A DNA stretch of 64,000 nucleotides from NCBI GenBank assembly GCA_030144725.1, contig JASKMD010000029.1, forward strand, positions 1,815,001-1,879,000, given 5' to 3'. The notes below the pieces were generated by a model. That model did no database searches, was not told the DNA's origin, and saw nothing but the letters and a program-made list of their open reading frames with translations. The DNA comes from Haematococcus lacustris. Lineage: Eukaryota > Chlorophyta > Chlorophyceae > Chlamydomonadales > Haematococcaceae. The position numbers and the translations under genes were made by a program. The stretch's first letter is position 1. Each line of letters opens with the position of its first letter. This document shows, in pieces, positions 6,655 to 62,459 of the stretch.

Positions 6655-7616
6655 TGCAGCCATGTGGCTACTGCTCTTCAGCCATGTGGCTACTGCTCTG
6701 TTGCCATGTGGCTACCGCTGTGTTACCATGTGGCTGCTGCTCTGTATCCATGTGGCTACTGCTCTATATCCATGTGGCTACTGCTCTGTATCCATGTGGC
6801 TACTGCTCAGTATCTATGTGGCTACTGCTCTGTATCTATGTGGCTACTGCTCTGTATCCATGTGGCTACTGCTCTGTATCCATGTGGCTACTGCTCTGTA
6901 TCCATGTGGCTACTGCTCTGTATCCATGTGGCTACTGCTCTGTATCCATGTGGCTACTGCTCTGTATCCATGTGGCTACTGCTCTGTTGCCATGTGGCTA
7001 CTGCTCTGTATCCATGTGGCTACTGCTCTGTATCCATGTGGCTACTGCTCTGTATCTATGTGGCTACTGCTCTGTTGCCATGTGGCTACTGCTCTGTTGC
7101 CATGTGGCTACTGCTCTGTATCCATGTGGCTACTGCTCTGTATCCATGTGGCTACTGCTCTGTATCCATGTGGCTACTGCTCTGTATCCATGTGGCTACT
7201 GCTCTGTTGCCATGTGGCTACTGCTCTGTATCTATGTGGCTACTGCTCTGTATCCATGTGGCTACTGCTCTGTATCCATGTGGCTACTGCTCAGTATTCA
7301 TGTGGCTACTGCTCTGTATCCATGTGGCTACTGCTCTGTATCTATGTGGCTACTGCTCTGTATCCATGTGGCTACTGCTCTGTATCTATGTGGCTACTGC
7401 TCTGTATCCATGTGGCTACTGCTCTGTATCCATGTGGCTACTGCTCTGTATCCATGTGGCTACTGCTCTGTATCCATGTGGCTACTGCTCTGTATCCATG
7501 TGGCTACTGCTCTGTTGCCATGTGGCTACTGCTCTATATCCATGTGGCTACTGCTCTGTATCCATGTGGCTACTGCTCTGTATCCATGTTGCTACTGCTC
7601 TGTTGCCATGTGGCTA
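6655..7616 (+). repeat. 22-bp minisatellite, about 43 copies
   Basis: Head-to-tail 22-bp units (CATGTGGCTACTGCTCTG plus TATC or TTGC). Because 22 is not a multiple of 3, all three plus frames stay open and cycle the same 22-residue pattern. These long frames are not genes. The same unit occurs in reverse orientation at 12177-13440. Confidence 0.95.
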
Positions 7617-7639
7617 CTTGCCTTATGAGTCTTGTTGCT

Positions 7640-12080: not shown

Positions 12081-12176
12081 TACGTTGTCAGAACTATATT
12101 GTAAAGCACTATGTTGTCGGCTGAAGATAGACAGTAGTACAAACGTTGTAATTGTAAGAAAGCAGGAGACAAGTAG

Positions 12177-13440
12177 CTACTGCGCAGTAGCCACATAGCT
12201 GCAGGGCAGTAGCAACATGGCTGCAGAGCAGTAGCCACATGGCTGCTGCTCAGTAGCCACATGGATACTGAGCAGTAGCCACATGGATACTGAGCAGTAG
12301 CCACATGGATACTGAGCAGTAGCTACATGGATACTGAGCAGTAGCCACATGGATACAGAGCAGTAGCCACATGGATACTGAGCAGTAGCCACATGGATAC
12401 TGAGCAGTAGCCACATGGATACTGAGCAGTAGCTACATGGATACTGAGCAGTAGCCACATGGATACAGAGCAGTAGCCACATGGATACTGAGCAGTAGCC
12501 ACATGGATACTGCCTAGTAGCCACATGGATACTGAGCAGTAGCTACATGGATACTGAGCAGTAGCCACATAGATACTGAGCAGTAGCCACATGGATACTG
12601 AGCAGTAGCCACATGGATACTGAGCAGTAGCTACATGGATACTGAGCAGTAGCCACATGGATACAGAGCAGTAGCCACATGGATACAGAGCAGTAGCCAC
12701 ATGGATACTGAGCAGTAGCCACATGGATACAGAGCAGTAGCCACATGGATACAGAGCAGTAGCCACATGGATACAGAGCAGTAGCCACATGGATACTGAG
12801 CAGTAGCCACATGGATACTGCCTAGTAGCCACATGGATACTGAGCAGTAGCCACATGGATACTGAGCAGTAGCCACATGGATACTGAGCAGTAGCCACAT
12901 GGATACTGAGCAGTAGCCACATGAATACTGAGCAGAAGCCACATAGATACTGAGCAGTAGCCACATGGATACTGAGCAGTAGCCACATGGATACTGCCTA
13001 GTAGCCACATGGATACTGAGCATTAGCCACATGGATACAGAGCAGTAGCCACATAGATACAGAGCAGTAGCCACATAGATACAGAGCAGTAGCCACATGG
13101 ATACTGAGCAGTAGCCACATGGATACTGAGCAGTAGCCACATGGATACTGAGCAGTAGCTACATGGATACTGAGCAGTAGCCACATGGATACTGCCTAGT
13201 AGCCACATGGATACTGAGCAGTAGCCACATGGATACTGCCTAGTAGCCACATGGATACTGAGCAGTAGCCACATGGATACTGCCTAGTAGCCACATGGAT
13301 ACTGAGCAGTAGCCACATGGATACTGCGTAGTAGCCACATGGATACTGAGCAGTAGCCACATGGATACTGAGCAGTAGCCACATGGATACTGCCTAGTAA
13401 CCACATGGATACTGAGCAGTAGCTACATGGATACTGCGCA
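12177..13440 (-). repeat. 22-bp minisatellite, inverted arm, about 56 copies
   Basis: Plus-strand unit AGCAGTAGCCACATGGATAC plus TG; its reverse complement is the unit of the 6655-7616 array. Variants (TACAGAGCAG, TGCCTAGTAG, TAGCTACATG) are interspersed. Multiple minus-strand open frames are artefacts. Ends at a GCGCAGTTGACGCTGCTAAT copy of the terminal motif. Confidence 0.95.
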
Positions 13441-13483
13441 GTTGACGCTGCTAATTCCTGTGAATGCATAGCAGTATCCACAT

Positions 13484-13718
13484 ATATACAGAGCAGTATT
13501 CACATAATTACAGAGCGGTATCCACATCTATAATGCGCAGTATGCAATGGCTACAGAGCAGTATCCACATATCTACACAGCAGTATCCACATAAATACAG
13601 AGCAGTATTCACATGCTTGCTGGGCAGTATCCAAATAATTACAGAGCAGTATCACCATGCCTACAGAGCAGTATTCTTATGGATACTGCGCAGTCAATTA
13701 TGGATACTGAGCAGTCAA
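13484..13718 (+). repeat. Degenerate 24-25-bp repeats
   Basis: About nine diverged copies of ACAGAGCAGTATCCACAT plus a variable tail. They are related to the 22-bp array and lie just inside the right terminal inverted repeat. Confidence 0.7.
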
Positions 13719-13762
13719 CCATGGATACTGCGCAGGTGACGCTGCTAATTTGTGTGAGTGAT

Positions 13763-31752: not shown

Positions 31753-34700
31753 ATGCCAGGAATTATTGGCACCGCGCCTGGTTTACTACCAACGAATACG
31801 TACCAGCATGTCCAGCGCCACAAGACCTGTGTCGCCGCCTCCCGAAGGTCGGGCCTCCTTACCCTGCCAGCAGCGCTCCTGGCCTCCTCAATGCTGATGC
31901 CCCGGCCTTATGCAAGGGGTGAAGTCAAACCCATTGAGCTGACCGAAGCCCTGCCCCCCGCCGAGATGTATGCGCGCTACACGTACCAAGAGCCTGCAGA
32001 CATCACACGCTACATCACTGACAGGGCCGCGCCAGGGGACTCCCAGGCAGTGCTCCAGGCAATAGATGAGTTCGCCACGGCGTTCCCTATGTACAGGCAT
32101 GTCAACATGCCTGGCAGCAGTAAATCAGGCACGTGGTTGCTCACAGCGCTTTGAGCCGGGCCAGGCTTGCATGACCCCTCACAGGACGCATGGCCAAGCA
32201 GGGCCCAGGCTGCAAGCCCCGTGTTGCCAACACACGCAGCGCTGCACCTGCACTGCCCTTGCCTGGTTTACTTCAACCAAAGACTGTAGCTTATAGCCCT
32301 GACCCATTCGAAACCAAACATGCCAGCTGGCACCGCAGCAGCAAACACAGCAAGACACAGCAGTGCCGGGCTGCAGGCTGGGCCCGGAGAAAGGTGCCGT
32401 CCTGGAAGCTGCTGTGGCCCTAGCACGTCCACAGCTGGTGGTGGAGCTGGGCAGCTTTGTGGTGAGTGGCTCTGCATGGGTAACCCCTCCCCTGCTCAAC
32501 CCTGGCGGCAGTGCTGCTTGGCTGCATACACCGCCCCCCAACACCCCCTCACCAGCTGCTGGGGGAAGGAAGGGGGGTGCTCTGCCAGAGGCTGCCCAGC
32601 CACACCCGCTATGTTACACTCATTGCAATCATCATCAGGGTACATAGGAGTGCGAAGCACCCACTGCCTAATCACTGGCAGGAGTATGGCATGCAGGAGC
32701 ATGTGTGCAGGTGTGTTGAGCCGGGCAGCAAGCTTTTCGAGAGGCAGGCTACCCAGGCGTGCTTGCCAAATGCGAGCCTCACTGCCAGGATGACAGTAGC
32801 ATGTCAAACTACCGACCATGGGTGCAACTGCTTGTATCTGGGGGTTGCAACCAAGCCATTCACAGCCCCCTTGTCCCTCACTAGGGCCTCCATTTGAGCC
32901 GGATCAGAAGTACCTACTAGCAGCCACTAGCAGCCACTAAGTAGATCCGACTCAAACGGTGTTATTGGGCTGTGTGGAGTGAACCCAGTGCACATGGCAC
33001 ATGAGCCGCCTACCACCTACAGTATTGCCTGACCCGTCAGGGCAACGTGTAGAGTTGGCATGACAAAACATGCACTGATTGGAAGCTGAGGACAGCTCAA
33101 CAAAGGGGGCACACATTACTGTGCCACAGCAGGCTGCTGTTGCTGCTCCTGGGCCTTGGGAGGCTTGTCTCGCAGCCGCTTGTAGCCAGGCCAGGGTACT
33201 CCTTGCCCTTGGCTGGCAGAGCTCCCTGGTCTGGCCAGTAGCACAGCTCGAGTGGACGCCACCTGCTCTCCCCAATGCGCTGCATGTTCAATGCTGCATT
33301 GCAGTCCCTGTCCAGCCACCTTCCTGGCTGTGGTGCAGGCTTTGCCTTGGCAGCCTTGCCCTTGCCCTTGCCCTTGGTGGGCTCAGCTGCCGGCTTGCTA
33401 CGCTTGGCTGGAGGGGGAGTGTTGGGCCCTGGCTCTGAGGCTGCAGGCTGTGTGGCTGCCTGGCTGCTGCGTGGGGCCTGTGGGGGCTGGCGGGGGGCCA
33501 CTACTGGGCACCACATCAGGCCCCGCACTGGCTGGCCACGCTCCTGGCTCCAGGCTGGGCGCACCAGGCGCTGTTCCACCTGCCCTTCTGGGGGCTTCCA
33601 GCCTGCAGGCCTTGTGGCACTGAGTTTGTCCAGCTCCACCTCACAGGGCTGCTGGCCATTCACTGCTGAGCTGACCCGGCTGGTGCGGTGCTCATCCACC
33701 AGCACCACCCTGCCTCGCCGCTGGCCTGCGCCCCTGGGCCTGCACACCACCTTGCAGCAGGCTCGCAGCACCGCGTCAGCACCCCACCCACCCACAGTGC
33801 CAATGGTAGCTGCACCAAAGAACACCACCAGCTGATTGGCATGATTGTGGCGCTCCATGGACAGCTCAGCCATCTCCTCCTCCAGCTGACACCACACGCT
33901 GACACCATTTGTGTCCACCAACCTCTCGAAAGCAAACTCCTTGTTGCGGAGCTTTTTGGTGTTGAACCACCTGGCCCAGTGATGGCTCAGTGCTGGCTCT
34001 GGGGTGAATGCTTACCGGGTTTCCTTGGTCAGGCCCAGCTGCCTGCACACCCAATGCAGCACCCTGCTGTCCACCTTGATGAAGTGCACCCCCACCCTGG
34101 CCATGGGGGTGAGGGTGAAGGGGGGTGGGCAGGTCAGGGTCCGGGGACCAACCCCACGCCTCTTGCCGCGCTTTGTTTGCCCTGGCACAGGGGGGGGGTG
34201 GGGCTGCTGCCACCGCTCTAGCCACCGGCACACATGCACTGCATGGCGCATGCGGCAGGGCAGGGGCAGGGTGTCCTGCAGGGAGCCTTCCTTCTTCATG
34301 CCCAGTAGGTGACGGTGCTTGTTGGCCTCCTCTGTCAGGTCCGCCACATGGCCCTTGTCCAGGGTGGCGGCCTTCAGCTCCGAGCTCTTGGCGTTGATGC
34401 CATACCCGCACGCCATCCTGATGAACAGCTGCGCCTCCTCCCCGCTCCAGCCTAGCTGGGCCCTGGCTGCCTTGGCGTACAGCTTGACTATGCGCTCTGC
34501 AGGTCAGGTCAGGTCAGGTCAGGTCTGGTCTAGTCACCAGCATCACTTGCCTGGGTTGGAGTAATGCTGCTGCATGGCCACCGCCAGCTGCATGGAGTGT
34601 GCGTCGATGGTGTTGGCGTCACCCGCCAGGTTGATGCTGCACAGCTCCTGCAGCTTGGCGAGAAGCGCCTGGTTGCTGGGGTCCTCAAAGGCTGGCATGA

Positions 34701-37700
34701 GCATGGGGTGGCGGTTGCGCCCAAGGCGCCGCTGCATCTGGTTGTAGCATGTCTTGAAGTTGGGGATGGCAAAGAACATGCAGAAGTCCTTGAGCTGCCT
34801 CAGCATGACAGGGTCCTCGCAGTCAAGGGGCAAGGGAGGGCCAGTGGGTGCTGCAGGTGCAAGGGCTGCCAGGCGGGCGCTGCAGCACCTTGGGGGGGGC
34901 TGCGTGACTGGCTCAGGTTCTGACTCTGACTCTGACTCCTAGTCAGACTGTGGCTCTGGCTCTGAGCCACAGTCTGACTCGGAGTCAGAGTCAATGTCAC
35001 ACTCCATGCTGGCAGCCTGGGCAGGGGTAGGCTGGGCAGGGGCACGTGGGGGTAGGGGGGGTTAGGGGGGGAGCATCAGGGGGTTGGGGGGGCTGCACAT
35101 CTGGAGGCTGAGGGCGCTGGGGAAGCCCGGGGTAGGGTAGCCCACCAGGCACGTCAGGAAAATTCTGAGCACCAGCAACGAGGCGATGATGCGGAGCTGG
35201 GAGTGGGTTTCAGCCCGCAGCCGGAGGTGCTCCCGCAGCTTGCGCCTGGTCTTCTTGCAGCCGCGCAGCACTGCGCCCTCGGGGACCTTGATGACCTGCA
35301 TGACCAAGCACAGTTGCCATTTTGACAGGCCAAGACAAAGGCGGGGTCAATACACACAGTGCGGGGACACATAAGGCGGGGCCGTCACCTGACGTCTACA
35401 CGTGGTCCAGCCATCCCGACGCTCTTGGCGTTGCTTGCCTTGAGAGGAACGAGACGCTGCAATGGAACCAACAGGAGCGACGGGTTATCACACAACGCGT
35501 AGCCCACAGTAGCCCACAGTCGGCTAGGGTCACGCACCTTTCTGTTTCTTTCCCGGGTCCTTCTTGTGCTTCTTTCTAGCCATCACGCGATGCGCAGTGC
35601 GACGGGCGGTTTCAAGCCATTCACAGCCACTCAACTGTCAACTGCCCAACCACCAACTTCTTGCAACAGCTGCCAATTGAAGAGCAACGCATGGCAACCC
35701 GCAAAAGCATGCAAGTATACCCACGGGATCTGCTCATGGCCCATGATGCCCATGGCGCATTATGGCTCACACAACATCTCTACGACTAAGCAGATGGCTT
35801 CTGCAGGAGTGTGATACAAGCAGGAGTGTGATACTCTGCTGAGTGCTCAGGTTCGGCTGTAACACAACACATCCCGCCAGCCTCGTACTGCCCACCATGT
35901 CCCTCACTACCACCACGTCCCAACTCCTTCCTCCATTGTCTCTCTCCCCAATTTCCCTCCTTCCCCACCCCTTCCCCTTGCTGGCCAGCCTGGTGTAATT
36001 TGGATGATGAGAAGCACGATGACCGGCAACCTGTCAGCTTCGTGCAAGAGGCGTTGCAGACAAGGAGGGTGCTTCTGCTGAGCTCGAAACCGGTTTGGCG
36101 CCAGCCAGTCAAGGCCCCCGCCTTGAACCTACCCTCGTATTAGGTGCTCTGGCTGTCATGTTGTGCTGATGCCGTGCAGAGTCCCAGCTGTGCCCGTCGC
36201 TCGCAGGGTTATAGCGCGACCCGCATTGCCCGGGCGCTGCCCCCCGGGGGTCGTTTGGTGTGCGTGGAGGCGAACCCCAAGTGCGTGGCCGCTTTGGAGG
36301 CAGTGCTGCAGCATGCCGGTCTGCGTGAGAGCGTCGTAATAGAGCAAGGGCTGGCGCGCGACGTGCTGCCACACCTGGCCGCGAAGTATGGCCCGGCACA
36401 GATGGTGTTCGAGGTGCGATCGGGGCGGGCGAGGGTAGGGCGACCACTAAGCTTGCGTTTGCCCATCTGTTGTGTTGTTTAACTTGCTTTTTTATGACGC
36501 ACTGACACATTAAACACCATGCTGCACCAAACAGCCCCCTTGTCCCTCACTAGGGCCTCCATTTGAGCCGGATCAGAAGTACCTACTAGCATACACTATC
36601 AGCCACTAGTAGCCACTAACTAGATCCGGCTCAAACAGTGTTATTGGGCTGTGTGGAGTAAACCCAGTGCACATGGCACATGAGCCCGCCTACCACCTAC
36701 AGTATTGCCTGACCCGAGGGCTATGATGTAGAGTTGGCATGACAAAACATGCACTGATCAAAAGCTGATGACAGCTCAAGAGGGGGGGCACACACTACCG
36801 TGCCTCAGCAGGCTGCTGTTGCTGCTCCTGGGCCTTGGGGGGCTTGTCTCGCACCCGCTTGTAGCCCAGGCCAGGGTACTCCTTGCCCTTGGCTGGCATT
36901 GGATTGGATTGGAGTAATGCTGCTGCATGGCCACCGCCAGCTGCATGGAGTGTGCGTCGGTGTTGTGAAAACCCGCCAGGTTGATGCTGCCCAGCTCCTG
37001 CAGCTTGGCCAGCAGCGCCTGGTTGCTGGGGTCCTCAAAGGCTGGCATGAGCATGGGGTGGCGGTTGCGCCCAAGGCGCCGCTGCAGCTGGTTGTAGCAT
37101 GTGTTGAAGTTTGGGTTGGCAAAGAACATGCAGAAGTCCTTGAGCTGCCTCAGCATGACAGGGTCCTCGCAGTCAAGGGGCAAGGGAGGGCCAGTGGGTG
37201 CTGCGGGTGCAAGAGCTGCCAGGCGGGCGCTGCAGCGCCTTTGGGGGGGTTGCGCGACTGGCTTAGGTTCTGACTCTGACTCTGACTCGTAGTCAGACTG
37301 TGGCTCTGGCTCTGAGCCACAGTCTGACTCGGAGTCAAAGTCATTGTCACACTCCATGCTGGCAGGCTGGGCAGGCTGAGCAGGCTGGGCAGGCTGGGCA
37401 GGGGCCCGTTGGGGGAGTGGGGGTAGGGGGGGAGCATCAAGGGGTTGGGGAGGCTGCACAGCTGGAGGCTGAGGGGCGCTGGGGGAGCCTGGGGTAGGGT
37501 AGCCCACTGGGCAGGTGAGAAAGATACGCAGGACAAACAAAGAGGCGATGAAGCGGAGCTGAGAGTGGATCTTAGCCCGCAGCCGGAGGTGCTCCCGCAA
37601 CTTGCGCCTGGTCTTCTTGCACCCGCGCAGCACTGCGCCCTCGGGGACCTTGATGACCTGCATGACCAAGCACAATTGCCATTTTGACAGGCCAAGACAA

Positions 37701-38662
37701 AGGCGGGGTCAATGCACACAGTGCGGGGACACATAAGGCGGGGCCGTCACCTTACGTCGACGCGTGGTCCAGCCATCCCGATGCTCTTGGCGTTGCTTGC
37801 CTTGAGAGGAACGAGACACTGCGATGGAACCAACAGGAGCGACGGGTTATCTCACAGCGCTAACTCACGTCTAGGGCTCACGTCACGGCTGGGGACACGA
37901 ACCTTTATGTTTCTTGTCGCTACCCTTCCGCTTCTTCTTAGCTATCACGCGATGCGCAGTGCGACGGGCGGGGGCATTTTCTAGCAATTTGGGTTTCCGT
38001 GAAAAATACACGGATGTGTGAAAATACACAAGTGCATCGGCAAAATACACAAGTGCACCAAATAGCCCCTCATGTCGACCTTGCACCATCGTGGCTGTCT
38101 TCGTCCAACAAACACTGCTGCAGTGCGCACTGGGACACGTCCAGCCTGCACACATCACAACACCAGATGTGAATGTGAAGAGGGCCCGACCAACGTCACA
38201 TGGCTACATGCGTGTCAACAGGCCCAGTGCCTACAGCTAAGATAGACCGAGGCTGGCAGACGCTGGTTATTGGCCTGCCCTGCCCCGCAGGACCACTGCA
38301 AGGACTGCTACCTGCCCGACCTGCTCCTAGCTGAAGACACAGGTCTGGTGGTTCCAGGCACGTGGGTGCTGGCGGACAACGTGTTGTACCCCGGGGCGCC
38401 TGACCTGCTAGCGCACATCGCAACACCCAGCAAGGCCGGCTACGCAGCTGTGTTGGTGGCCGCGAGCTACGAGTATTCGCAGCCGTGGAACCCCGCATGG
38501 AAGCCTCCACCGGACGCGGTTTCGGTGGCTGTGCGCGGTGTGCCGGGGGACCGCGGGGCGCAGCCAGACGGTCAGGCGCATGCTCAGCTGTCGCAGCTGT
38601 GCGCATTGCTTGGACCCAATAGATGCCAAAGCCTGCAGCCCTTTGTGCGGATGGTTGGCTGA
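31753..38662 (+). CDS. Catechol-O-methyltransferase-like SAM-dependent methyltransferase
   Basis: Exons 31753-32090, 32377-32461, 36207-36413 and 38291-38662 join to 1002 nt (333 residues) with matching phases. The joined protein follows the COMT family: [20 protein letters not shown], then [29 protein letters not shown] (SAM-binding motif I), [15 protein letters not shown] (acidic end of strand 2), [17 protein letters not shown] (metal-binding Asp region) and [19 protein letters not shown] (Asp-Asn metal ligands). It should transfer methyl groups to catechol-type hydroxyls, using Mg2+. The N-terminus ([17 protein letters not shown], then YARG) looks like a twin-arginine lumenal presequence, an inference only. 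Exon 1's donor was chosen to keep the family's M-x-GxxKG junction; the last 40 residues are uncertain. Introns 2 and 3 (3.7 and 1.9 kb) hold antisense Fanzor elements. Confidence 0.82.
32868..33096 (-). ncRNA. Candidate Fanzor omega-RNA / conserved 3' end with hairpin
   Basis: About 230 nt downstream of the Fanzor stop are strongly conserved in all three family members (also 36537-36775 and 40815-41050), although coding parts are deleted or truncated elsewhere. Near the outer border lies an inverted repeat, TTTGAGCCGGATC ... GATCCGGCTCAAA (one mismatch here, perfect in copies 2 and 3), with a roughly 45-nt loop. In TnpB and Fanzor systems the guide-RNA scaffold spans the 3' end of the gene to the element border, with the guide just outside. 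That this region is transcribed as such is inference. Confidence 0.4.
33097..35583 (-). pseudogene. Fanzor (eukaryotic TnpB-like RNA-guided nuclease) gene, decayed
   Basis: Minus-strand exons 35583-35538, 35456-35389, 35295-34551 (GC donor), 34496-34016 and 33970-33097 splice in phase. The start [15 protein letters not shown] is strongly basic (NLS-like). The C-terminal exon has [10 protein letters not shown] (RuvC-II-type Glu followed by the TnpB/Fanzor TS segment), a basic Pro-rich insert, and [18 protein letters not shown] (RuvC-III Asp, the TnpB DRDxNAAxN signature). Upstream [13 protein letters not shown] may be RuvC-I. Members are RNA-guided DNA nucleases of transposons. This copy has in-frame stops at 35064-35062 and 34941-34939, and a one-base deletion shifts the last 25 or so codons (expected ..[18 protein letters not shown]). 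The nuclease half itself is open. Confidence 0.82.
36537..37976 (-). mobile_element. Fanzor-type element, copy 2, internally deleted (COMT intron 3)
   Basis: Shares both ends with copy 1 but lacks the nuclease half. The frame 36776-37675 runs from [19 protein letters not shown] through [17 protein letters not shown] and [15 protein letters not shown], then jumps at about 36900 (next to a TTGGATTGGA repeat) directly to the gene's last codons ([12 protein letters not shown]). The first exon's ATG is ATA. In this copy exon 3 is free of the two stops seen in copy 1, so it preserves the ancestral N-terminal reading frame. It is non-autonomous. Confidence 0.82.
36776..37960 (-). pseudogene. Fanzor gene remnant lacking the RuvC region
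   Basis: N-terminal exons retained (basic first exon with lost start, second exon [14 protein letters not shown], long third exon with an acidic Ser/Glu/Asp tract and the LKDFCMFF...LGRNRHPML segment). All RuvC motifs are deleted, so no nuclease can be made. It helps define the intact third exon. Confidence 0.78.
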
Positions 38663-39751: not shown

Positions 39752-40814
39752 CCTTGCCTGGGCTTGATTCGCGACGAAGCCAGCAGTGCGGGACCATGGA
39801 GCCCGGCCAGTGGCTACTCGCTCGGCCATTCGAGCGGACCCAGCTTGGCTTCGCTTCGAGCGCCTGGTCATGGCTTAAACCCATCTTTTTGCGGCTGGCA
39901 TCGACCAAAAGGTAAACGGACGGCTCCGATGGGCGGAGAGGGGTCGTAGCTTCTATACTTATAATAATGGCGGGCTGAAACGACTTCAGTTTTGGGAAAA
40001 GGCCCCGGGCATGGCCAGATCTTAGCTGTTTTCCATGTTTTACCTGATTACTACTAGCACACGCATCAGTTTGCAGGCATAATTATAGTATCGATGGATG
40101 TACTTGATGCGGTTCCCCGGTACTCATTGCAAGGGGTTGGGCGCATGTGGCATGCATAAACATCTCTTGACAGTGTGTCCATCATCACCACTCGCCATAG
40201 AACGAGCTGATGCATGTTAAGGCCAAGTCAGCGCAAGGGTGTGAGTGTGTGGTACAGCTAGCTGCGGAAGAAGTTTCAGGCCCAAAGCATCACGGCGTAC
40301 CCCCTCAACCCGGCCATGAGACAAGCCTCTAGCAAGCAGCATGTAGCACACACTGTAGACACCCAGTAGGCACCTGGACATCGCCGAGGACATCGCTGCG
40401 ACAGCGCACATACTTTAGGGCGCAAATAAGAGCGATGGAGCGCTCCTGGCGTTGTGTGCTGGTCGGGGCCCCCGAACATTGGACGGGGTCGCGGACCAGC
40501 CAATCACCATAGGCCTGTTCCTCTGAGCCGATGCTAACGTGCGCGGCGCTGCGTCAAGGCGTGCCAATCTTACATCGTGAGGCGGTGTATAGAGTTAGTT
40601 AGGTCCCTCCGAAAAATGTGGTTTTTTTGGCTTACTTGTCTAGCCTGACTTAGTGCCGCCACTTGGGGCCGGCATGGTCCTTCATAGGGCACGCCGCAGT
40701 GCCGCGCCTTTGCCCGCACCCGCCCGCCCGCCACCTCCGCCGATACTGGTCTTCTTGCTCAAGAACTGCACCAGGGCCAAATCCTGCACTCAAATCCTGC
40801 ATCCAAGCGCTGGT
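39752..40814. other. No supported gene
   Basis: Unique sequence with short frames only and no recognisable domain or repeat. GC skew and codon pattern do not favour any frame. Confidence 0.35.
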
Positions 40815-41137
40815 CCCCCTTGTCCCTAACTAGGGCCTCCATTTGAGCCGGATCAGAAGTACCTACTAGCATACACTATCAGCCACTAGTAGCCACTAAC
40901 TAGATCCGGCTCAAAACGGTGTTATTGGGCTGTGTGGAGTGAACCCAGTGCACATGGCACATGAGCCCGCCTACCACCTACAGTATTGCCTGACCCGAGG
41001 GCTATGATGTAGAGTTGGCATGACAAAACATGCACTCAACAAAGGGGGCACACATTACTGTGCCACAGCAGGCTCCTGCTGCTGCTCCTGGGCCTTGGGA
41101 GGCTTGTCTCGCAGCCGCTTGTAGCCCAGGCCAGGGT
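40815..41137 (-). mobile_element. Fanzor-type element, copy 3, 3' end only
   Basis: Matches the 3' end of copies 1 and 2 from CCCCCTTGTCCCTAACTAGG, through the GAGCCGGATC/GATCCGGCTC hairpin, to the last codons ([18 protein letters not shown]), stopping at about 41137. The rest is missing, so this is a 5'-truncated or deleted copy. It outlines the minimal conserved 3' unit. Confidence 0.82.
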
Positions 41138-48651: not shown

Positions 48652-49823
48652 AACTTGTGTGGTGTGCTGATAGTGCTCATATCAACTCCATGCCGTGATT
48701 TCATCTAAGGTACAATTGCAGGCAACTACAGCGTAGTTATAACCGCAGACTGCAATGCCATGGATGATGTCATTGCCCAGCAATACATCCCATGCATCAC
48801 TTGCTGTGTGTGCTCTGCAGGTGCATGCCTACGTTCCCACATCCCCTTAAAGGCCGGCAACAACAGCAGCAGCAGCAGCAGCAGGGGTGGTGGTGGGGAG
48901 GGGGCAGGAGGGCAGGGTGTGGGGCTGGGGCAGTGGGCACCATCCCCCACTCGCTCTCAGCCACTTGGCTCAGCGCCGGGCAACAACAGCAGCAGCAGCA
49001 GCAGGGGTGGTGGTGGGGAGGGGGCAGGAGGGCAGGGTTCAACAAAGGGTTCATGCAACACTAGACAACAAAGGGTTCATGCAACACTACACGCCGTCTC
49101 TCCTCCTGCGTGTAGTGTAGTGTAGTAAAAATATTTAAATTTCTACAGGACGTGTCACAGCTGATCGGGGATCGGGACATTAATCGGGGATCGGGGATCG
49201 GGGATCGGGACAACCTGTCTCGTCGCTGTGATTTATCACAACAGTATGCCCGGAATGACCGAGAGTGGGTCAGGGTATAGTGATGTTACATTCATTCAAC
49301 TGCCAACTCCAACCCTCCCGCTTCAAGATTCAATAGGAAACACGGATATACACCGTGATAGTTCTACACTATTAGTTGCCTGACGCTGTTCCTGCCATAC
49401 AAAATGTTCACACATATTCGCTCACGCTATGCAAGGATGCTGCATGTCATTCTATGCAGGTACAAAGGCGACACAAGCATGCACAGTACAAGCGCAGGAA
49501 CATCTCGCCAGTTATAGCTGTAGCTATAGCCTCCCCACCTAAAGCGTACACTCCCCTCATCACCGGATCCCGGCCGGTCAGCAGCAGCGGGTCACTCGGC
49601 TACAGAAAAACTCGTTGCAAAATCTTGCTGCCTCAATGGCTTGACAGCCAGCATGTGAAAGCTCCCAGCCTCTTTCAATTCTCCTCAACTATGGCTGTCA
49701 GCCCCATGGCCTGACCTAAAAACCCATCGCATACTCTCCAGCACAGAACCCACTTGCTTGCGTGTCACGGCTTGACTGGCTGCCTCTTGTCCTCCTTCAC
49801 TGGCTGCTGTCCACTGCCCCTGC
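48652..49823. other. Intergenic with CAG/G-rich duplicates and ABCC 3' region
   Basis: Two near-identical copies (48857-48918 and 48979-49038) of a CAACAACAGCAGCAGCAGCA block followed by GGGGTGGTGGTGGGGAGGGG; an ATCGGGG-type repeat at 49165-49210. From about 49260 the sequence matches 58400 onward, i.e. it is the 3' flank of the duplicated ABCC gene. Confidence 0.5.
49286..49290 (-). terminator. Candidate poly(A) signal TGTAA for ABCC copy A
   Basis: TTACA on plus is TGTAA on the gene strand, about 535 bases past the stop. The equivalent TGTAA in copy B is at 58417-58421, about 490 bases past its stop. TGTAA is the standard signal in volvocalean algae. Confidence 0.5.
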
Positions 49824-52800
49824 TCAGCGCCCATGCCCTGCAGCCTGGCGTGCCGCAAAGAAGTTGGCTGCCATCTGGCGCAGTGCGGCTGCAGCAGCGT
49901 CGCCAGTCTTGTCCACCAGCTTGCTGAACATGGACTCCCGGTCAGCCAGCAGGGCGCTGGGCTCCGCATTCTCCTTCAGCACACCAGCCTCCATCACCAG
50001 CACCTGGGCAGGGCAGGGGGCAGGGGGCACTGTGAAGCCAGCACTCACTGCCCTCCAGCCTAATGGCACGCAAGGCCAGCAACCGGTGCCTCCAGCACCA
50101 CAGCCTGCCGGGCCCCTCCTCTGCTGCTGGGTTCAGGTTGACCAGTGCATGCCTCTGCCAGCGGCTGTGCCTTGCCCTGCCACCCGCCCCTCACGGCCTA
50201 GGCAGCTGCTGGCCTCACCTTGTCGGACTCAATCACGGTGTCCAGGCGGTGCGCAATGGTGATGATGGTGCGTGCCTGGAATACGCGCTTGATGACGGCC
50301 TGCACCTCCTGCTCAGTGGCCGGGTCCATGGCGGCAGTGGCCTCGTCCAGGCACAGCACAGGCACCTGCAGCACCAGGGCCACCAGCCAGGGCTCAGCTC
50401 AACCACTGCTCCACCTGGCCAGCTCGACCAGCAGCTCAGCCTATGTGGACATCAACCTCGCTGATGTCCACTCCAGCGCTGTTCCTGGGCCAACAGCCAT
50501 CCACCACCAACAGCAGTGCCGGTTGGCCACACGCACCTTGCGCAGGGCAGCGCGTGACAGGCACACCAGCTGCTGCTGGCCCAGGGACCAGGCGCCTGAG
50601 CCAGTGCCAGCCACACGGCCGTCCAGGCCGCCTGTGCGCTTCACCTGCTCCTCAAGGCTGGCCTGCGGGGCAGGACAGGGCAGAAGGGGGTCAGCTGTGG
50701 ATTTGGAGCAGGGGCAGGGAGCAGTGGGAAGGGGCCAGTAGGGGTAGGGTCTGCCGCATCTGGCTGTGCGCCTGACCCTGGCAGCGCTCCCTGACTGCTG
50801 CTGCCACCAGCACTGGCCTGGCCTGGCTCTCACCTGCTTGATTACGTCCCACAGCTCCACATCAGTGTGCTCGCTGAAGGGGTCCAGGTTGGTGCGCACG
50901 GTGCCGCTGAACACCACTGGCTCCTGGGGGATGATGCTCAGACCGCGGCGCAGGCGGCGCAGGGTCATGCTGGCGATGTTTGCACCGTCCACGAAGATGT
51001 TGCCCTTCTCCAGCTCAAACATGCGGTACAGCGCCAGCAGCAGCGTGCTCTTGCCCGACCCAGTGCGACCCACCACGCCAACCTGCAGTGGGGGGCAGTC
51101 AGGCAGCCAGGCAGCTCAGCAGTCCGTGGGTGCAGTAGCCTGTGGGGTGGGGAGCAGTGCCCTGTCCTGGTGCTCACCTTGTCATGGTGGGCCAGCGAGA
51201 AGGTGACGCCCTTGAGGGCAAAGGGTGCAGTGGGCGCATCTGCAGGTCATGGACAGCAAGCTGCTGGTGGGCAGAGCGTGGGCTGATGCCCAGCAATGGG
51301 AATGTTGACCATGAGGTCGTGGGTGCATGCAAGCTGGCACAGGGGCAGCACAGGGGCAGGGACACAGGCTGGTCAGCTGGAGGTGCATCATCTCAGGCCA
51401 GCCACTGCCTGCGGGGGCTTGGGCCAGCCACTCACATTTCATCCACACGTTGTCAAACACCACGGTGCCGCGGCTGGGCCAGTTGATGGGTGCCCCGTCA
51501 GCGTCCATGGTGCCAGACTTGGCCTGCTTGCCTCCCGCTGACACCACGATGCTCAGGTCAGGCTTGCCACCACTGGTAGAGGTGCTGGAAACCGGGGTTT
51601 GATCAGCCTTGGCAGCACCCTCCACTGGAATGGAGGTGGCTGCAGCAGCAGGGAGGCGAGCAGGCCAGCAGGGGTGGGCAGCTGGGAATGGGTTTTGGTC
51701 CGGGTGCTGCAGGGTGTGGTGTGGGGCCAGCACTAGGCAGGGGCAGTCCTGTGCTCGTCAGGGTGTGCGCTGGGCTGCTGTCCAGGCAGGAGCACGGCCA
51801 CCACCCACCCAGCCAGCCGATCTTCTCCACAGCAGCCAGGTTGAACAGGGACTCTGCCAGGAAGCGCACGGACCAGGTGTAGAACACAAGCATCTGCACA
51901 GAAAGCAGGGCATGCCAGGGCAAGTGGTGCGGTGTGGTGTGGCAGGGCAGGGTATGCTGGAACAGGTCAGGTCAGGTCAGGTTGATCAGCAGCAGCGGTT
52001 GCAGTGGCGTGTCACCCAGTGTGGTTGCCCAGTGCAAGGGGCCCTCACCTGGATGGTGTTGCTGAATGCCAGTCCCACAGTGGCTGCTCCCAGCTCCTCC
52101 GCCAGGCCCACCGCAAAGCAGGACACAGCCAGCACCAGGATGGCGCCGTACAGGTCGCACCAGTGCGCCAGCCACAGGTTCAGGGACTCGCCAGTGAACA
52201 CGGTGGCGTGGTGCACGTCATTCCTGAGCAGCCAAGGCGGCAATAGGCAGGCTGGGAGGGTGGTGTGCCTGGGTGCTGGGGCTGGTAGGCGGACATGGCC
52301 AGGTGCTCAGCTCAGTGGCCTGGAGCCTTGCGCCCCAGGCAGCTGTGGAGCAGCCAGGTGGCTAGCCATGCGAGGGATGTCACGCATGCTCCATGGCATG
52401 CAGGCTGGGGCTGGTGCGCCCACTCACCGCTGGATGGCAGTCTGGATGAAGAACTCGGTCTTGTTGAAGGCCTGGATGACGGACAGCCCCTCCAGCGTCT
52501 CAGCCACCAGGCCCACCAGCGCTCCTGCTCAGCAGGCAGGGCCAGGGAGCAGCTCATGCCAGGGCCAGGGCCAGGGCCACAGGGCAGGGTTTGATGCCAG
52601 GCAGGCCAGGTGCCAGCAGGGCTACCAGCACCGCCAGCAGCCCACCACAAGGCTGCCACTAGATTTGCTTGTGCACTGGCCAACTGTGGCTGTCATACAG
52701 CCCTCACCTCCTGTGGTGGTGCGGTGCGCCTTGAGCTTGGTGGCAGCGGGCAGGTAGAACACCAACATGATCAGGGTCACGATGATGAGCACGCCCGCAA

Positions 52801-55800
52801 AGGCGGAGAAGTAGTAGATGGTGGTCGACACCGTAATGATGGTGGACAACATGATCAGCCCTGCACCACCACACCCAGGGCACCAGCAGCGAGGCTGACA
52901 AGCCACGACACAACCAACCAACCAACCAACCAACCTACCTACCACCCTTGCTGCTGCAGTGGGCTGATGCTGCTGCTGGTTCTTGTGCTGCCCTCACCAT
53001 AGATGCCCAGGTAGTGCAGGGAGTCCACCAGGTTCTCGTCCATGATGTCCTGGTCCTTGGTGAACGCCAGCAGCAGCTCACCCACTGGGTTTTGCAGGAA
53101 AAAGCTCAGCGGGGCATACAGGGTGCTGCGGGTGCAGGGTGAGTGGGGCAGTAACTGATAAGCCACCAGCAAGGGAAAGGAAAGGGAAAAGGGCGCAACA
53201 GCCACTGCGACTGCTAGTGTGGTCAGCTGGAGGCTGTACTTCCAGCTGAAGGGGGAGAGGTATCAAGTAGCATGGCATAGCTGCCAGCTGCCTGGTCCTA
53301 GGCCCCTCCTGCTGCTGCCCTCCTGGATCAGGCCCAGCCTCACTTGTGCACGGCGCGGGCGTGCAGGCGCTGGCAGGAGCCGTGTGTCCACCAGTGGAAG
53401 CCGGCACCGCGGAAGAACATGGAGAAGACGAAGAACAGCACAGGGATGGAGTAGGTGATGATGTAGGCCTGTAACACACACCAGGGGCAGGGCAGCAGCC
53501 GAGATTGGATGGGACCCTGGCTGGCCTTCCGCTGCACAGCACCACTGCTTGACAGCTGCTGCCCTCCTGCCTGGGCTGCCCTGTCCACCCAGCCCACCAC
53601 TCCTGAAGCTACACTTCCAGCCCACCTGGCCGGCAGACAGCTTGGTGAAGGGCGGGTCAGTGGCGGCGTCCACTGGGTTCCTCCTGATCACGCTCTTGGG
53701 GTACCACACGCGCGCGTCACTGGTCCACTGCCGCAGCCACCAGTCGCTGATCTGGCGGGAGGTCTGGCAGGCCAGGAAGATGATCAAGGTGATGGTGAAC
53801 ACCGTGCCCCAGCCCGGCGAGTAGGCTAACATGGTGCGCATGGCCTCGTTCACAGTCAGCGCGGTCTTCTTCTCCTTCTTCTTGCCCATGCTGCCCTTCA
53901 GGTCGGTCACGCCCAGGTTCAGCGAGCCGGAGGTCGCGGGGCGCGCCTTCTTGGTCGTGTCGCGCGGCTGCTCTGCGCCACCAGCAGCTGCCAGGAGGTG
54001 CGAGGTGGGCAGCACCCTCGACAGCAGCTCGCGCGCGCGCTCGTTCCAGGGTCCAAAGTACAGCATGCGGCCGTCCTCCATGATGGCCACCTTGTCCATC
54101 TGCGGCAGGAACTCGACCTGGTGCGTGATCATGACCACGGCCTTGTCGCGCATCAGGCCGCGCAGGCAGTGGCTGAACATGTGGTGGGCGGTGTGGTGGT
54201 CCACAGCGGACAGGGCGTTGTCCAGCAGCACCAGGTCGCTGTCGGCGTAGGCAGCGCGGGCCACGTTCAGGCGCTGGCGCTGGCCTGCAGTGCAGGAAGT
54301 CAAGCAAGGAGCTCCACACGTGGCAGGCCTGTGGTTGCAGAGGAGGGGATGGGAGGGAGCATATGGCTGGGTGGAGGGGCCAGGCCAGGCCCAGCAGCAG
54401 GCAGGCGTGCTCACCACCGCTGAGGTTGATGCCACGCAGGCCTGCATAGCTCTGGTTGCCCTGTGGGAGGATCTGCAGGTCCAGCTCCAGGGCACAGGCG
54501 TGGATGACGGCATCGTAAGCCTCAGGGTCGAACTCCTTGCCAAACAGGATGCTGTCACGCTGCAAGCACCCAGGCAGGAAGGAAACGTAGGCATTGGTCC
54601 AGCATGGCAGAGGCACTTGCCTTGCCCTGCCCTACTACTCCACACACCCAGCTGTGTCCCAGATCCTTGCCCTGCCCTGCCCTGCGCAGCCCTGTGCTAC
54701 CTGGCTGTGTGCCTCACCAGGGTCAGGTTCTGGCACCAGGGGTTCTGGGGCACGTAGGCCACGCGGCCACCGCATGTGGCGCTGCCATGCAGCTTCTCCA
54801 TGTTGCCCAGGATGGCAGAGATGAGGGACGACTTGCCAGCACCCACACGCCCCACGACAGCCACCAGTTCACCAGCCTTGACGCTGAACTCGGGCACAGA
54901 CAAGGTGAATGGGGTGGTGCTGTTGGGGTGCTTGAACTCCGCATCCCGCTGCAGCCAGGCAGGCACAGCCACCAGGTGAGGCAAGGATGGGCAGGGGAGG
55001 CACAGCGGCAGGGATGAGGGGCAGGGCAGTGGTTGCAAGAGGCATTGAAAGGGGTAGGCCAGGGGCAGGATTGCACTAGCAGCCTGCATCCTGCACTCAC
55101 AATAGCGACCCCGGCTGTGCGGTTCATGGCCTGGCGGTCCGGCACCTCAGCCAGCAGGAACGCCTCCACCCTGCGGCAAGCACAGGCCAGCAGCAGCGGC
55201 AGCCGCATGTCCACTGCTGGGGCTGGCAGGCCTAGTCAGCTCGTTGTTCATCAGCAAGGCCTGAAAGACCTGGCAGGCTGGAGCTGCTACTGGTGGCACG
55301 TGTGGCAGCAGCACCTCACCTGTCGATTGAGGCAAGCATATCTGATGCAGCGCGCATGGCCTTGGGCAGCACCACCAGGGGGAAGCGGAGGATGTTGAAC
55401 AGGGACAGGATGGGGAAGGTCAGGGTGCTGGTGATGCGCGACACATTGAGCTCGTAAGCGCTGAAGATGACCAGGGCGGTGGCAGGTGGGGTGCCGAACA
55501 CCATCCTGCGGCACAAAGGAGCGTGGCACAGCAGTCAGCAGCAGCAAGTCAAGCCACAGGATGGTAGGCAGTCTGTGGCCACTGGGTGTCATGCTCATGC
55601 AGGCCAGAGGGGCCAAGTGGGAGAGTTCAGGGCAGGGCTAGGCAGAGCAGGGCAGGGCAGGTAGAGGGGAAGCATGGCCAGTCCGCTGCTACCCACTCAC
55701 ATGACCTGGATGGTCTTGATCAGGGCCACACGAAACTGGATGGCCAGCTCACGCTTGCGGATCTGCACACCAGGCAGCACGGCGCAAGATGACACCCAAT

Positions 55801-58051: not shown

Positions 58052-58911
58052 TGCGGGTGTGGCCAAATGCGGTGGAAGCTGGGCTGGTCCAGCTCTGCCT
58101 GTATTGTGGGTGGGTGGGGCTTTAAGCTTTTAGGATTGTAGGAGTGAGTGTTCGAGGTTCCGGCATACAACCCCCTACGCGGCTGAACCTCGGCATTGGT
58201 GCGTGATGGTATGTTCGCACCATTGGATGACCTCACGCAAGATAAGAGCTTGTCAGACAACAGCTCGTGTCACACGGTTTCAAGAGACGGAGCAACCCAA
58301 CAATAGTAGAGGACTGCGATGGTTTGCGCTGGTTTGTGCGTTCGGTGTAAGCCAATACGATAGCCAGCACCGTGAAGTTGTGGGCGCCTGAGACTAGGGC
58401 AGGGAATAGAGTGTTGTTACATTCATTCAACTCCCAGCTACCTCACTCACGCTTCAGATCCAAGTTCACAGATACATCCATTGTTCTACACTACAAGCTG
58501 CATGATGCTGTTCCTGCCATACAAAATGTTCACACATCTGCTCACGCTATGCAAGGATGCTGCCTGCCACTCTATGCAGGTACACAGGTGCTCAGCATGC
58601 AACTGCCAGCGCCGCAGCAGGTGTTGGACAAGCATGCACAGTACAAGCGTAGGGACATCTCGCCAGTTTTAGCTGTAGCTTTAGCTTCCCCACCTACACA
58701 TACACTCCCCTCTTCTTGCTGCCTCCATGGCTTCACAGCCAGCATGTGAAAACTCCCAGCCTCTTTCAATTCTTCTCACCCATGGCTGTCGGCCCCATGG
58801 CCTGACCTAACCCATCGCATACTCTCCATCACAGAACCCACATGCTTGCGTGCCACAGCTCGACTGGCTGCCTCTTGCCCTCCTTCACTGGCTGCTGTCC
58901 ACTGCCCCTGC
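58052..58911. other. Spacer between ABCC copies; promoter of A and 3' flank of B
   Basis: About 58400-58911 matches the 3' flank of copy A (49260-49823), including the TGTAA. About 58052-58400 is the 5' region of copy A; no TATA-like element is obvious. No separate gene. Confidence 0.5.
58417..58421 (-). terminator. Candidate poly(A) signal TGTAA for ABCC copy B
   Basis: Plus-strand TTACA in a GTTGTTACATTCATTCAACT context shared with copy A. Confidence 0.5.
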
Positions 58912-61900
58912 TCAGCGCCCGTGCCCTGCAGCCTGGCGTGCCGCAAAGAAGTTGGCTGCCATCTGGCGCAGCGCGGCTGCAGCAGCGTCGCCAGTCTTGT
59001 CCACCAGCTTGCTGAACATGGACTCCCGGTCAGCCAGCAGGGCGCTGGGCTCCGCATTCTCCTTCAGCACACCAGCCTCCATCACCAGCACCTGGGCAGG
59101 GCAGGGGGCAGGGGGCACTGTGAAGCCAGCACTCACTGCCCTCCAGCCTAATGGCACGCAATGCCAGCAACCAGCGCTTCCAGCACCTCAGCCTGACAGG
59201 CCCCTCCTCTGCTGCTGGGTTCAGGCAGACCAGCGCATGCCTCTGCCAGCGGCTGTGCCTTGCCCTGCCACCCGCCCCTCACGGCCTAGGCAGCTGCTGG
59301 CCTCACCTTGTCGGACTCAATCACGGTGTCCAGGCGGTGCGCAATGGTGATGATGGTGCGTGCCTGGAATACGCGCTTGATGACGGCCTGCACCTCCTGC
59401 TCAGTGGCCGGGTCCATGGCGGCAGTGGCCTCGTCCAGGCACAGCACAGGCACCTGCAGCACCAGGGCCACCAGCCAGGGCTCAGCTCAACCACTGCTCC
59501 ACCTGGCCAGCTCGACCAGCAGCACAGCAGATGTGGACCTCACAACCTGGCTGATGTGCACAACAACGCTGTTCCTGGGCCTACAGCCATCCACCACCAA
59601 CAGCAGTGCCGGTTGGCCACACGCACCTTGCGCAGGGCAGCGCGCGACAGGCACACCAGCTGCTGCTGGCCCAGGGACCAGGCGCCTGAGCCAGTGCCAG
59701 CCACACGGCCGTCCAGGCCGCCTGTGCGCTTCACCTGCTCCTCAAGGCTGGCCTGTGGGGCAGGACAGGGCAGAAGGGGGTCAGCTGTGAGTGTGGAGCA
59801 GGGGCAGGGAGCAGTGGGAAGGGGCCAGTAGGGGTAGGGGCTGCCGTATCTGGCTGTGCGCCTGACCCTGGCTGCACTCCCTGTCGGCTGCTGCTGCCAC
59901 CAGCACTGGCCTGGCCTGGCTCTCACCTGCTTGATGACGTCCCACAGCTCCACATCAGTGTGTTCGCTGAAGGGGTCCAGGTTGGTGCGCACGGTGCCGC
60001 TGAACACCACTGGCTCCTGGGGGATGATGCTCAGACCGCGGCGCAGGCGGCGCAGGGTCATGCTGGCGATGTTTGCACCGTCCACGAAGATGTTGCCCTT
60101 CTCCAGCTCAAACATGCGGTACAGCGCCAGCAGCAGCGTGCTCTTGCCCGACCCAGTGCGACCCACCACGCCAACCTGCAGTGGGGGGCAGCCAAGCAGC
60201 CAGGCAGCTTAGCAGTCAGTGGGTGCAGTAGCCTGTGGGGTGGGGAGCAGTGCCCTGTCCTGGTGCTCACCTTGTCATGGTGGGCCAGCGAGAAGGTGAC
60301 GCCCTTGAGGGCAAAGGGTGCAGTGGGCGCATCTGCAGGTCATGGGCAGCAAGCTGCTGGTGGGCAGAGCGTGGGCTGATGCCCAGCAATGGGAATGTTG
60401 ACCATGAGGTCGTGGGTGCATGCAAGCTGGCACAGGGGCAGCACAGGGGCAGGGACACAGGCTGGTCAGCTGGAGGTGCATCATCTCAGGCCAGCCACTG
60501 CCTGTGGGGGCTTGGGCCAGCCACTCACATTTCATCCACACGTTGTCAAACACCACGGTGCCGCGGCTGGGCCAGTTGATGGGTGCCCCGTCAGCGTCCA
60601 TGGTGCCAGACTTGGCCTGCTTGCCTCCCGCTGACACCACGATGCTCAGGTCAGGCTTGCCACCACTGGTAGAGGTGCTGGAAACCGGGGTTTGATCAGC
60701 CTTGGCAGCACCCTCCACTGGAATGGAGGTGGCTGCAGCAGCAGGGAGGCGAGCAGGCCAGCAGGGGTGGGCAGCTGGGAATGGGTTTTGGTCCGGGTGC
60801 TGCAGGGTGTGGTGTGGGGCCAGCACTAGGCAGGGGCAGTCCTGTGCTCGTCAGGGTGTGCGCTGGGCTGCTGTCCAGGCAGGAGCACGGCCACCACCCA
60901 CCCAGCCAGCCGATCTTCTCCACAGCAGCCAGGTTGAACAGGGACTCTGCCAGGAAGCGCACGGACCAGGTGTAGAACACAAGCATCTGCACAGAAAGCA
61001 GGGCATGCCAGGGCAAGTGGTGCGGTGAGGGTTAGTGGTGCGGTGTGGTGTGGCAGGGCAGGGTATGCTGGAACAGGTCAGGTCAGGTCAGGTTGATCAG
61101 CAGCAGCGGTTGCAGTGGCGGTGTCACCCAGTGTGGTTGCCCAGTGCAAGGGGCCCTCACCTGGATGGTGTTGCTGAATGCCAGTCCCACAGTGGCTGCT
61201 CCCAGCTCCTCCGCCAGGCCCACCGCAAAGCAGGACACGGCCAGCACCAGGATGGCGCCGTACAGGTCGCACCAGTGCGCCAGCCACAGGTTCAGGGACT
61301 CGCCAGTGAACACGGTGGCGTGGTGCACGTCATTCCTGAGCAGCCAAGGCGGCAACCAGGCAGGCTGGGAGGGTGGTGTGCCTGGGTGCTGGGGCTGGTA
61401 GGCGGACATGGCCAGGTGCTCAGCTCAGTGGCCTGGAGCCTTGCGCCCCAGGCAGCTGTGGAGCAGCCAGGTGGCTAGCCATGCGAGGGATGTCACGCAT
61501 GCTCCATGGCATGCAGGCTGGGGCTGGTGCGTCCACTCACCGCTGGATGGCAGTCTGGATGAAGAACTCTGTCTTGTTGAAGGCCTGGATGACGGACAGC
61601 CCCTCCAGCGTCTCAGCCACCAGGCCCACCAGCGCTCCTGCTCAGCAGGCAGGGCCAGGGAGCAGCTCATGCCAGGGCCAGGGCCAGGGCCACAGGGAAG
61701 GGTTTGATGCCAGGCAGGCCAGGTGCCAGCAGGGCTACCAGCACCGCCAGCAGCCCACCACAAGGCTGCCACTAGATTTGCTTGTGCACTGGCCAACTGT
61801 GGCTGTCATACAGCCCTCACCTCCTGTGGTGGTGCGGTGCGCCTTGAGCTTGGTGGCAGCGGGCAGGTAGAACACCAACATGATCAGGGTCACGATGATG

Positions 61901-62426
61901 AGCACGCCCGCAAAGGCAGAGAAGTAGTAGATGGTGGTCGACACCGTAATGATGGTGGACAACATGATCAGCCCTGCACCACCACACCCAGGGCACCAGC
62001 AGCGAGGCTGACAAGCCACGACACAACCAACCAACCAACCAACCAACCAACCAACCAACCAACCAACCAACCAACCAACCTACCACCCTTGCTGCTGCAG
62101 TGGGCTGATGCTGCTGCTGGTTCTTGTGCTGCCCTCACCATAGATGCCCAGGTAGTGCAGGGAGTCCACCAGGCCCTCGTCCATGGTGTCCTGGTCCTTG
62201 GTGAACGCCAGCAGCAGTTCGCCCACTGGGTTTTGCAGGAAGAAGCTTAGCGGGGCGTACAGGGTGCTGTGGGTGTAGGGCGAGTGGGGCGAGAACTAAT
62301 CAGCCACAGTGCAGGCAAAGGAGAGGGAAAGGAAACGAGCTGCAGCAGACCCTGGCGCCATCTGCACTGAATGCTGGCAACGAGTGGTATGGCATAGCTG
62401 GCAGCTGCCCTGATCCTAGGACCCTC

Positions 62427-62459
<33 letters not shown>

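What the first reader, a model, noticed from the sequence alone, without database searches (positions are those of the whole stretch)
32868..35612. Fanzor (eukaryotic TnpB) element in an intron of a methyltransferase gene
The VVLVDEHRTS and WLDRDCNAALNM motifs identify a TnpB/Fanzor-type RuvC nuclease with spliced introns and a basic N-terminus, i.e. a eukaryotic RNA-guided nuclease family. This copy has two stops and a frameshift in otherwise conserved exons, so intact relatives probably exist elsewhere in this genome.
Basis: partly seen in the sequence, partly recalled or inferred. Interest (0 to 1): 0.85.

Follow-up and report, generated by a model that had tools for sequence, protein, structure and literature searches.

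The report
Dead Fanzor copy from huge family
A broken copy of a eukaryotic RNA-guided DNA-cutting enzyme gene (Fanzor) sits in an intron of a green alga's methyltransferase gene, and the same genome holds about four thousand copies of its tail, a structured, RNA-like end that may carry thousands of different guide sequences.

Summary
Confirmed, with corrections. The window is from Haematococcus lacustris. Element A (32863-35612, gene on the minus strand) is a Fanzor1-type gene with introns, inside an intron of a catechol-O-methyltransferase-like gene. It is a dead copy: besides two stops and lost frame it lacks the part with the first RuvC aspartate. Copy B lies in the next intron; copy C (40812-41137) is a tail only. 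The family is enormous: 4053 copies of its 3' end and 937 of its RuvC-I motif in 308 Mb. The RuvC acids are conserved among copies (the Fanzor-type displaced Glu in 266 of 270) and the best, though weak, fold match in the PDB is a Fanzor. The three subfamilies seen lack the usual C4 zinc finger. Copies are anchored at a strongly folded 3' end, often 5'-truncated, keep the introns tested, and about half show 8-15 bp target duplications, nearly always preceded by CTG (usually GRCTG), like the element's own last bases. This resembles the Chlamydomonas CRe Fanzor1/Helitron2 elements. Best reading: a non-autonomous copy-and-paste element carrying an RNA-guided nuclease and its guide RNA; dead copies may supply guides in trans. 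What mobilises it was not found; nuclease activity is inferred.

The parts
32863..35612 (-). Element A: Fanzor1-type element, gene on minus strand, broken
   Evidence: 3' end at 32863 by comparison with genome copies, 5' end at 35609-35612
35613..35623 (-). 5' target-site duplication of A (TGAATGGCTTG), preceded on the minus strand by target motif GGCTG (35624-35628)
32852..32862 (-). 3' target-site duplication of A; also where the guide part of an RNA would be read from
   Evidence: guide role inferred from known Fanzors
33097..34011 (-). ORF with the C-terminal Fanzor exon: RuvC-II Glu (33693-33691), degenerate zinc-finger region, RuvC-III DRD (33312-33304)
34012..34503 (-). Middle part of the Fanzor gene, ends at an in-frame TAA (34012-34014); residues 449-629 of P0127, with RuvC-I, are missing at about 33895
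34543..34938 (-). N-terminal exon part; in-frame TAG just upstream at 34939-34941
35539..35583 (-). First exon, basic start MARKKHKKDPGKKQK
32863..32968 (-). Structured 3' end of A, candidate omega-RNA scaffold: 16-bp stem plus terminal hairpin, ends GGGCTG
   Evidence: (folded 32868-32965, z -5.5)
36532..38053 (-). Element B: internally deleted copy reaching about 80 bp further 5' than A, mostly sequence also seen at the 5' end of other long copies (L032, L044); TSD TTTGGTGCA at 36523-36531 and 38054-38062, target motif GGGGCTA at 38063-38069
36532..36647 (-). Structured 3' end of B
40812..41137 (-). Element C: 3' end only, 5'-truncated, no TSD found, terminal CTG absent
32411..32461 (+). Part of the host catechol-O-methyltransferase-like exon upstream of A
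36207..36413 (+). Host exon between A and B
38291..38539 (+). Host exon after B (the part used in the comparison)

Best explanation
Element A is a dead copy of a very large Fanzor1-type element family of Haematococcus lacustris. SHOWN: relation to Fanzor1 by motif, with a weak but Fanzor-led fold match; conservation of the three RuvC acids among copies; loss of the RuvC-I part in A; retention of introns at the junctions tested; a conserved structured 3' end; variable 5' truncation and internal deletions; in about half the copies examined, 8-15 bp target duplications, mostly preceded by GRCTG; about 4000 copies of the 3' end. INFERRED: intact copies make an RNA-guided DNA nuclease whose guide RNA is the folded 3' end plus the adjoining flank. 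The element is copied at DNA level (introns kept), starting from its 3' end, by an enzyme supplied in trans, as proposed for the Chlamydomonas CRe Fanzor1/Helitron2 elements. The nuclease then cuts the still-empty allele or sister, so that repair copies the element in. A, B and C cannot make the nuclease, but A and B keep the RNA module and could act as 'ghost' guide loci.
Confidence: 0.72

Rival explanations
1. The copies are made by target-primed reverse transcription: a LINE enzyme recognises the folded 3' end of an unspliced transcript and primes at a nick after GRCTG. The Fanzor gene is then a passenger on a SINE-like retroelement.
For: Intact 3' ends, variable 5' truncation, unshared 5' sequence and variable-length TSDs are hallmarks of that process (own knowledge); the 3' end is strongly folded on the gene strand, 177 of 842 cells being G-U pairs (my sum).
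Against: Introns are kept at the three junctions tested, so the RNA would have to be unspliced; no RT element with the same tail was identified (none was searched for); the element's last bases are its own, not the target's, in L023, L027 and L040 (target GACTG, element GGGCTG).
Confidence: 0.25
2. The protein family has lost nuclease function and survives as an RNA/DNA-binding accessory factor or as a hitchhiker.
For: Zinc-finger cysteine positions are S705, V708 and V762 with only C759 kept; the loss is shared by three subfamilies; RuvC-I motifs are far fewer than 3' ends (937 against 4053).
Against: The catalytic Glu is among the most conserved positions and the RuvC-I and RuvC-III acids are kept, which a non-catalytic role would not demand.
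Confidence: 0.2
3. It is a Fanzor2 or bacterial TnpB acquired recently, or bacterial contamination.
For: TnpB relatives share RuvC and TNB domains (Pfam TNB hits in paralogs).
Against: Introns, about 4000 copies of the 3' end in the genome, matches on many contigs of megabase size, and Fanzor1 as best fold match. A serine recombinase was not searched for systematically.
Confidence: 0.03

Closest known systems
CRe-1, CRe-2, CRe-3: Fanzor1 elements of Chlamydomonas reinhardtii on non-autonomous Helitron2 transposons (Bao and Jurka 2013, PMC3627910; passages and section 9 seen)
   Same: Fanzor1 in a chlorophycean alga; 3' end kept in almost all copies; frequent 5' truncation and internal deletions; variable TSDs (about 7-19 bp there, 8-15 bp here); extra sequence after the 5' TSD in some copies; a fixed motif just before the 5' TSD; 3' hairpin
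   Different: Motif mostly GRCTG, not TTTT or T-rich; the motif resembles the element's own 3' end; no asymmetric inverted repeats found; thousands of 3' ends (35 to 150 loci per family are counted there); RepHel partner not shown; zinc finger degenerate
SpuFz1, GtFz1, PpFz1: characterised Fanzor1 nucleases (Saito 2023 PMC10432273 and Cell 2024 PMC11423790; passages seen)
   Same: DPG, displaced catalytic Glu, RuvC-III Asp; core of the model aligns so that catalytic residues appear to correspond; structured RNA at the right end of the locus
   Different: No CxxC..CxxC zinc finger; 182 residues between DPG and Glu (the search pattern of Yoon 2023 allows 120-160); long Lys/Pro-rich insert before RuvC-III; activity untested
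Fanzor element of Auxenochlorella, the most abundant repeat of that alga (Plant Cell 2025, PMC12636532; passages seen)
   Same: Fanzor-encoding repeat abundant in a green alga
   Different: Described there only as an uncharacterised element; relation to this family not tested

Membership tests
Fanzor1 | RuvC-I with DPG | tested here: met
   VGIDPG/VGVDPG in gene models; absent from window copy A by deletion
Fanzor1 | Displaced RuvC-II Glu six residues before the first zinc Cys position (E-x6-C) | tested here: met
   VDEHRTSRVS: Glu, six residues, then Ser in place of Cys; E698 in 266 of 270; definition
Fanzor1 | C4 zinc finger (CxxC..CxxC) between RuvC-II and RuvC-III | tested here: not met
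   S705, V708, C759, V762; no CxxC after the DE motif in 239 proteins and none in the motif list from 341. Yoon 2023 says many, not all, TnpBs and Fanzors have it
Fanzor1 | RuvC-III Asp in an RD motif | tested here: met
   DRD: D825 276 of 291, D827 275 of 292
Fanzor1 | Fold like solved Fanzor1 | tested here: inconclusive
Fanzor1 | Guide RNA from the 3' end running into the flank | not testable with these tools
   Structured, pair-conserving 3' end found; no RNA data; no Rfam match
Fanzor1 | Place in the Fanzor1 clade of a tree | not tested
   No characterised Fanzor sequence was fetched
Fanzor2 / IS607 | Insertion without TSD | tested here: not met
   TSDs of 8-15 bp at 15 of 31 3' ends after dropping a tandem case
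Fanzor2 / IS607 | Serine recombinase in or near the element | not tested
   Only selected pieces of A, B and relatives were scanned with Pfam
Helitron2 (CRe type) | 3'-anchored copies, variable TSD in truncated copies, fixed upstream motif | tested here: met
   the motif is GRCTG, not TTTT
Helitron2 (CRe type) | Asymmetric terminal inverted repeats | tested here: not met
   Best pairing 6 bases, 640 of 1000 shuffles as good; the 5' end used is not settled
Helitron2 (CRe type) | 5' terminal hairpin | tested here: inconclusive
   CCGTG..CACGG near the 5' end of long copies; exact 5' end not settled
Helitron2 (CRe type) | Ends shared with a RepHel-encoding element | not tested
   Family search PF14214 did not complete
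LINE-mobilised (SINE-like) retroelement | Copies derive from processed RNA (introns lost) | tested here: not met
   0 ungapped matches cross junctions 38, 247, 633 in L021-L045

The most novel reading that the evidence does not exclude
The genome carries thousands of 'ghost' guide-RNA ends (4053 3' ends against about 937 RuvC-I motifs), each followed by its own flank, served in trans by a smaller number of intact zinc-finger-less Fanzors. Because insertions follow GRCTG and elements end in GGGCTG, the insertion-site motif and the nuclease's target-adjacent motif may be the same, so that target choice, guide production and homing into empty alleles form one self-spreading RNA-guided system.
Probability: 0.2. 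Interest if true: 0.87.

Novelty: new variant of a known kind. Interest (0 to 1): 0.62.

Why it matters
What Fanzors do for their transposons is an open question (Saito 2023, passage). This family offers thousands of natural copies with readable ends, target motif and duplications in one cultured alga, so guide, target-adjacent motif and homing can be predicted locus by locus and tested. It also shows a Fanzor lineage without the canonical C4 zinc finger that keeps its catalytic acids. The searches made here showed no paper on Haematococcus Fanzors or on Fanzors in thousands of copies: the one work listed with both 'Fanzor' and 'Haematococcus' speaks of Auxenochlorella in its Fanzor passage. 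Most subscription papers are not covered. Matches to this family also lie inside many annotated H. lacustris gene models.

Tried and rejected
AF2 of the full 888-aa model P0127 with 46 close relatives gave mean pLDDT 36.6 and was not used. Sequence searches of PDB with P0011 and alignment A1 found no Fanzor. NCBIfam gave only weak matches far below cut-off. A scan of viral contigs with A1 found no relative. All three protein searches list only H. lacustris among the 120 best shown (of 1281, 570 and 603 hits), so other species in the unseen remainder are neither shown nor excluded. Terminal inverted repeats: none. Rfam: none. My first reading of 16-bp TSDs from the window alone was replaced once genome copies showed that the element ends in GGGCTG: the TSDs are then 11 bp (A) and 9 bp (B). 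My first reading of about 80 bp of captured sequence at the 5' end of B was also replaced: all but its first 17 bases recur in other long copies, so it is A that is slightly shortened.

In one search the top-scoring 'TSD' (L039) follows a neighbouring copy's own 3' end and was dropped: 13 of the remaining 15 follow CTG, 12 of them GRCTG (hand count). L031's lies only 38 bp from its 3' end and is doubtful but was kept. Motif counts were selected by motif; one search was not, but uses the listed best hits only. Alignment A4 uses 25 of 27 distinct 3' ends; two irregular ones (L022, L031) were left out, and six more ends lacked the start motif used. The structure counted was predicted from the same alignment, which favours it. 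A 5'-end count for comparison with the 3' ends did not complete.
Full report
WHAT IS THERE. The finding's coordinates are right to within a few bases. On the minus strand of 32863-35612 lies a gene with a short basic first exon, a Ser/Asp/Glu-rich linker, and a C-terminal exon with VVLVDEHRTS and WLDRDCNAALNM. Comparison with gene model P0127 (888 aa) shows residues 16-448 and 630-864 in place and residues 449-629 gone. The missing part holds the RuvC-I motif VGIDPG, so the copy cannot be a working RuvC nuclease, whatever its two stops (34939-34941, 34012-34014) and lost frames do. Copy B (36532-38053) keeps the N-terminal part and the 3' tail, and copy C (40812-41137) only the tail.

WHERE IT IS. 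A lies between exons ending at 32461 and starting at 36207, and B between 36413 and 38291, of a plus-strand gene (exon bounds read by eye). Joined, the exon pieces match catechol O-methyltransferase (PF01596 3.5e-12; PDB 3bwy 7.3e-36 over residues 6-131). Both elements are antisense to it.

WHOSE GENOME. The window is G000:C166:1815001-1879000 of a 308-Mb assembly. The published H. lacustris (pluvialis) assembly has a 21,607-kb longest scaffold, 316 Mb, 30,575 genes and 50.8% transposable elements (PMC10400597, passages).

HOW BIG THE FAMILY IS. The C-terminal ORF finds 1281 proteins at E<=1e-3 and 34,721 first-look places in the genome, of which 130 were scored. The element's 3' end, with up to 2 mismatches, occurs 4053 times (2022 + 2031) and the RuvC-I DNA motif 937 times (456 + 481); the reversed control patterns occur 0 times. 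The 3' end is thus about 4.3 times as frequent as RuvC-I, though one pattern may tolerate divergence better than the other. Yoon 2023 speaks of up to hundreds of copies for Fanzor-encoding transposons (passage).

HOW IT MOVES. Genome copies fix the 3' end at ...GTGAGGGACAAGRGGGCTG followed by unique flank (pattern found in 18 of 20 loci). Of 31 distinct 3' ends in 26 sources, 16 have an upstream repeat of the flank with score >=8, and 14 of these follow CTG; with flanks swapped between loci 40 of 243 reach the score and none follows CTG. After dropping a tandem case, 13 of 15 follow CTG and 12 of 15 GRCTG. TSDs are 8-15 bp. That of A is beyond 300 shuffles; for B 16 bases with one mismatch are, but its exact 9 bases are reached by 10 of 300; C has none. 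The other 15 ends show no TSD at this score. In 15 copies measured, the length between TSD and 3' end ranges from 186 to 2750 bp; in 8 of 15 the first 72-1032 bases after the TSD are not shared with the other fetched copies. Introns at residues 38, 247 and 633 are never crossed by an ungapped match in L021-L045, so these copies are not made from spliced RNA. This set of features repeats what Bao and Jurka describe for the Chlamydomonas CRe elements (PMC3627910), except for motif, copy number and inverted repeats. What enzyme copies it is open: the search for RepHel did not complete, and target-primed reverse transcription of unspliced RNA remains possible.

THE RNA END. The 3' end of A (98 bases folded, 32868-32965) forms a 16-bp stem plus a terminal hairpin (z -5.5; B -5.9, C -5.5; the whole 251-base 3' region z -3.8). 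Over 25 distinct ends 97.6% of cells pair, against 34-44% when slid; 13 cells show double changes against 3.1 by shuffle (0 of 500), but the number of pairs with double change (3 against 1.6, 50 of 500) and of pair types (448 of 500) is not telling. By my sum 177 of 842 cells are G-U, which would not pair on the other strand; this hints at constraint on the gene-strand RNA, though the structure was chosen on that strand. By analogy with Fanzors the RNA would continue into the flank, whose first bases are the TSD. Then the insertion motif GRCTG stands where the target-adjacent motif of the empty site would stand. The puzzle is that the element's own end, GGGCTG, also fits, so the filled site would be cut too unless more is needed.

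VERDICT. Ordinary as a single locus (a dead element in an intron), notable as a family: thousands of Fanzor-element ends in one genome, with a clear insertion rule, a structured 3' end, and no canonical zinc finger.

Noticed in passing
window 34921-34999 and 37271-37349: The acidic Ser/Asp/Glu linker of A and B is encoded by a near-perfect palindrome (36-nt arms, 92% and 86% complementary, 7 nt apart), so both strands carry the same GACTCTGACTC-type repeat.
   Followed up: no
window 49261-54857 and 58390-64000: A 5.6-kb direct duplication at 93% identity; a minus-strand ORF in it contains an ABC-transporter ATP-binding sequence (GRTGSGKSTLL..), read by eye.
   Followed up: partly
window 6642-7618 and 12161-13735: Two long tandem-repeat arrays of related units in opposite orientation, up to 91% alike.
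   Followed up: no
P0146, P0158, P0182, P0200, P0213, P0228 and others: Many annotated H. lacustris proteins combine Fanzor pieces with unrelated Pfam domains, probably gene models that run through intronic or neighbouring element copies.
   Followed up: no
proteins P0009, P0177, P0258, P0264: Two further Fanzor subfamilies (VTVDEFRTS and VIVDEFRTS types) share conserved Cys in QPC, WC and ELC contexts with the main family; these could form a different metal site.
   Followed up: no
L024, L026, L031, L039, L040, L042: Several fetched stretches hold two or more 3' ends of the family within about 6 kb, suggesting nested or tandem copies.
   Followed up: no
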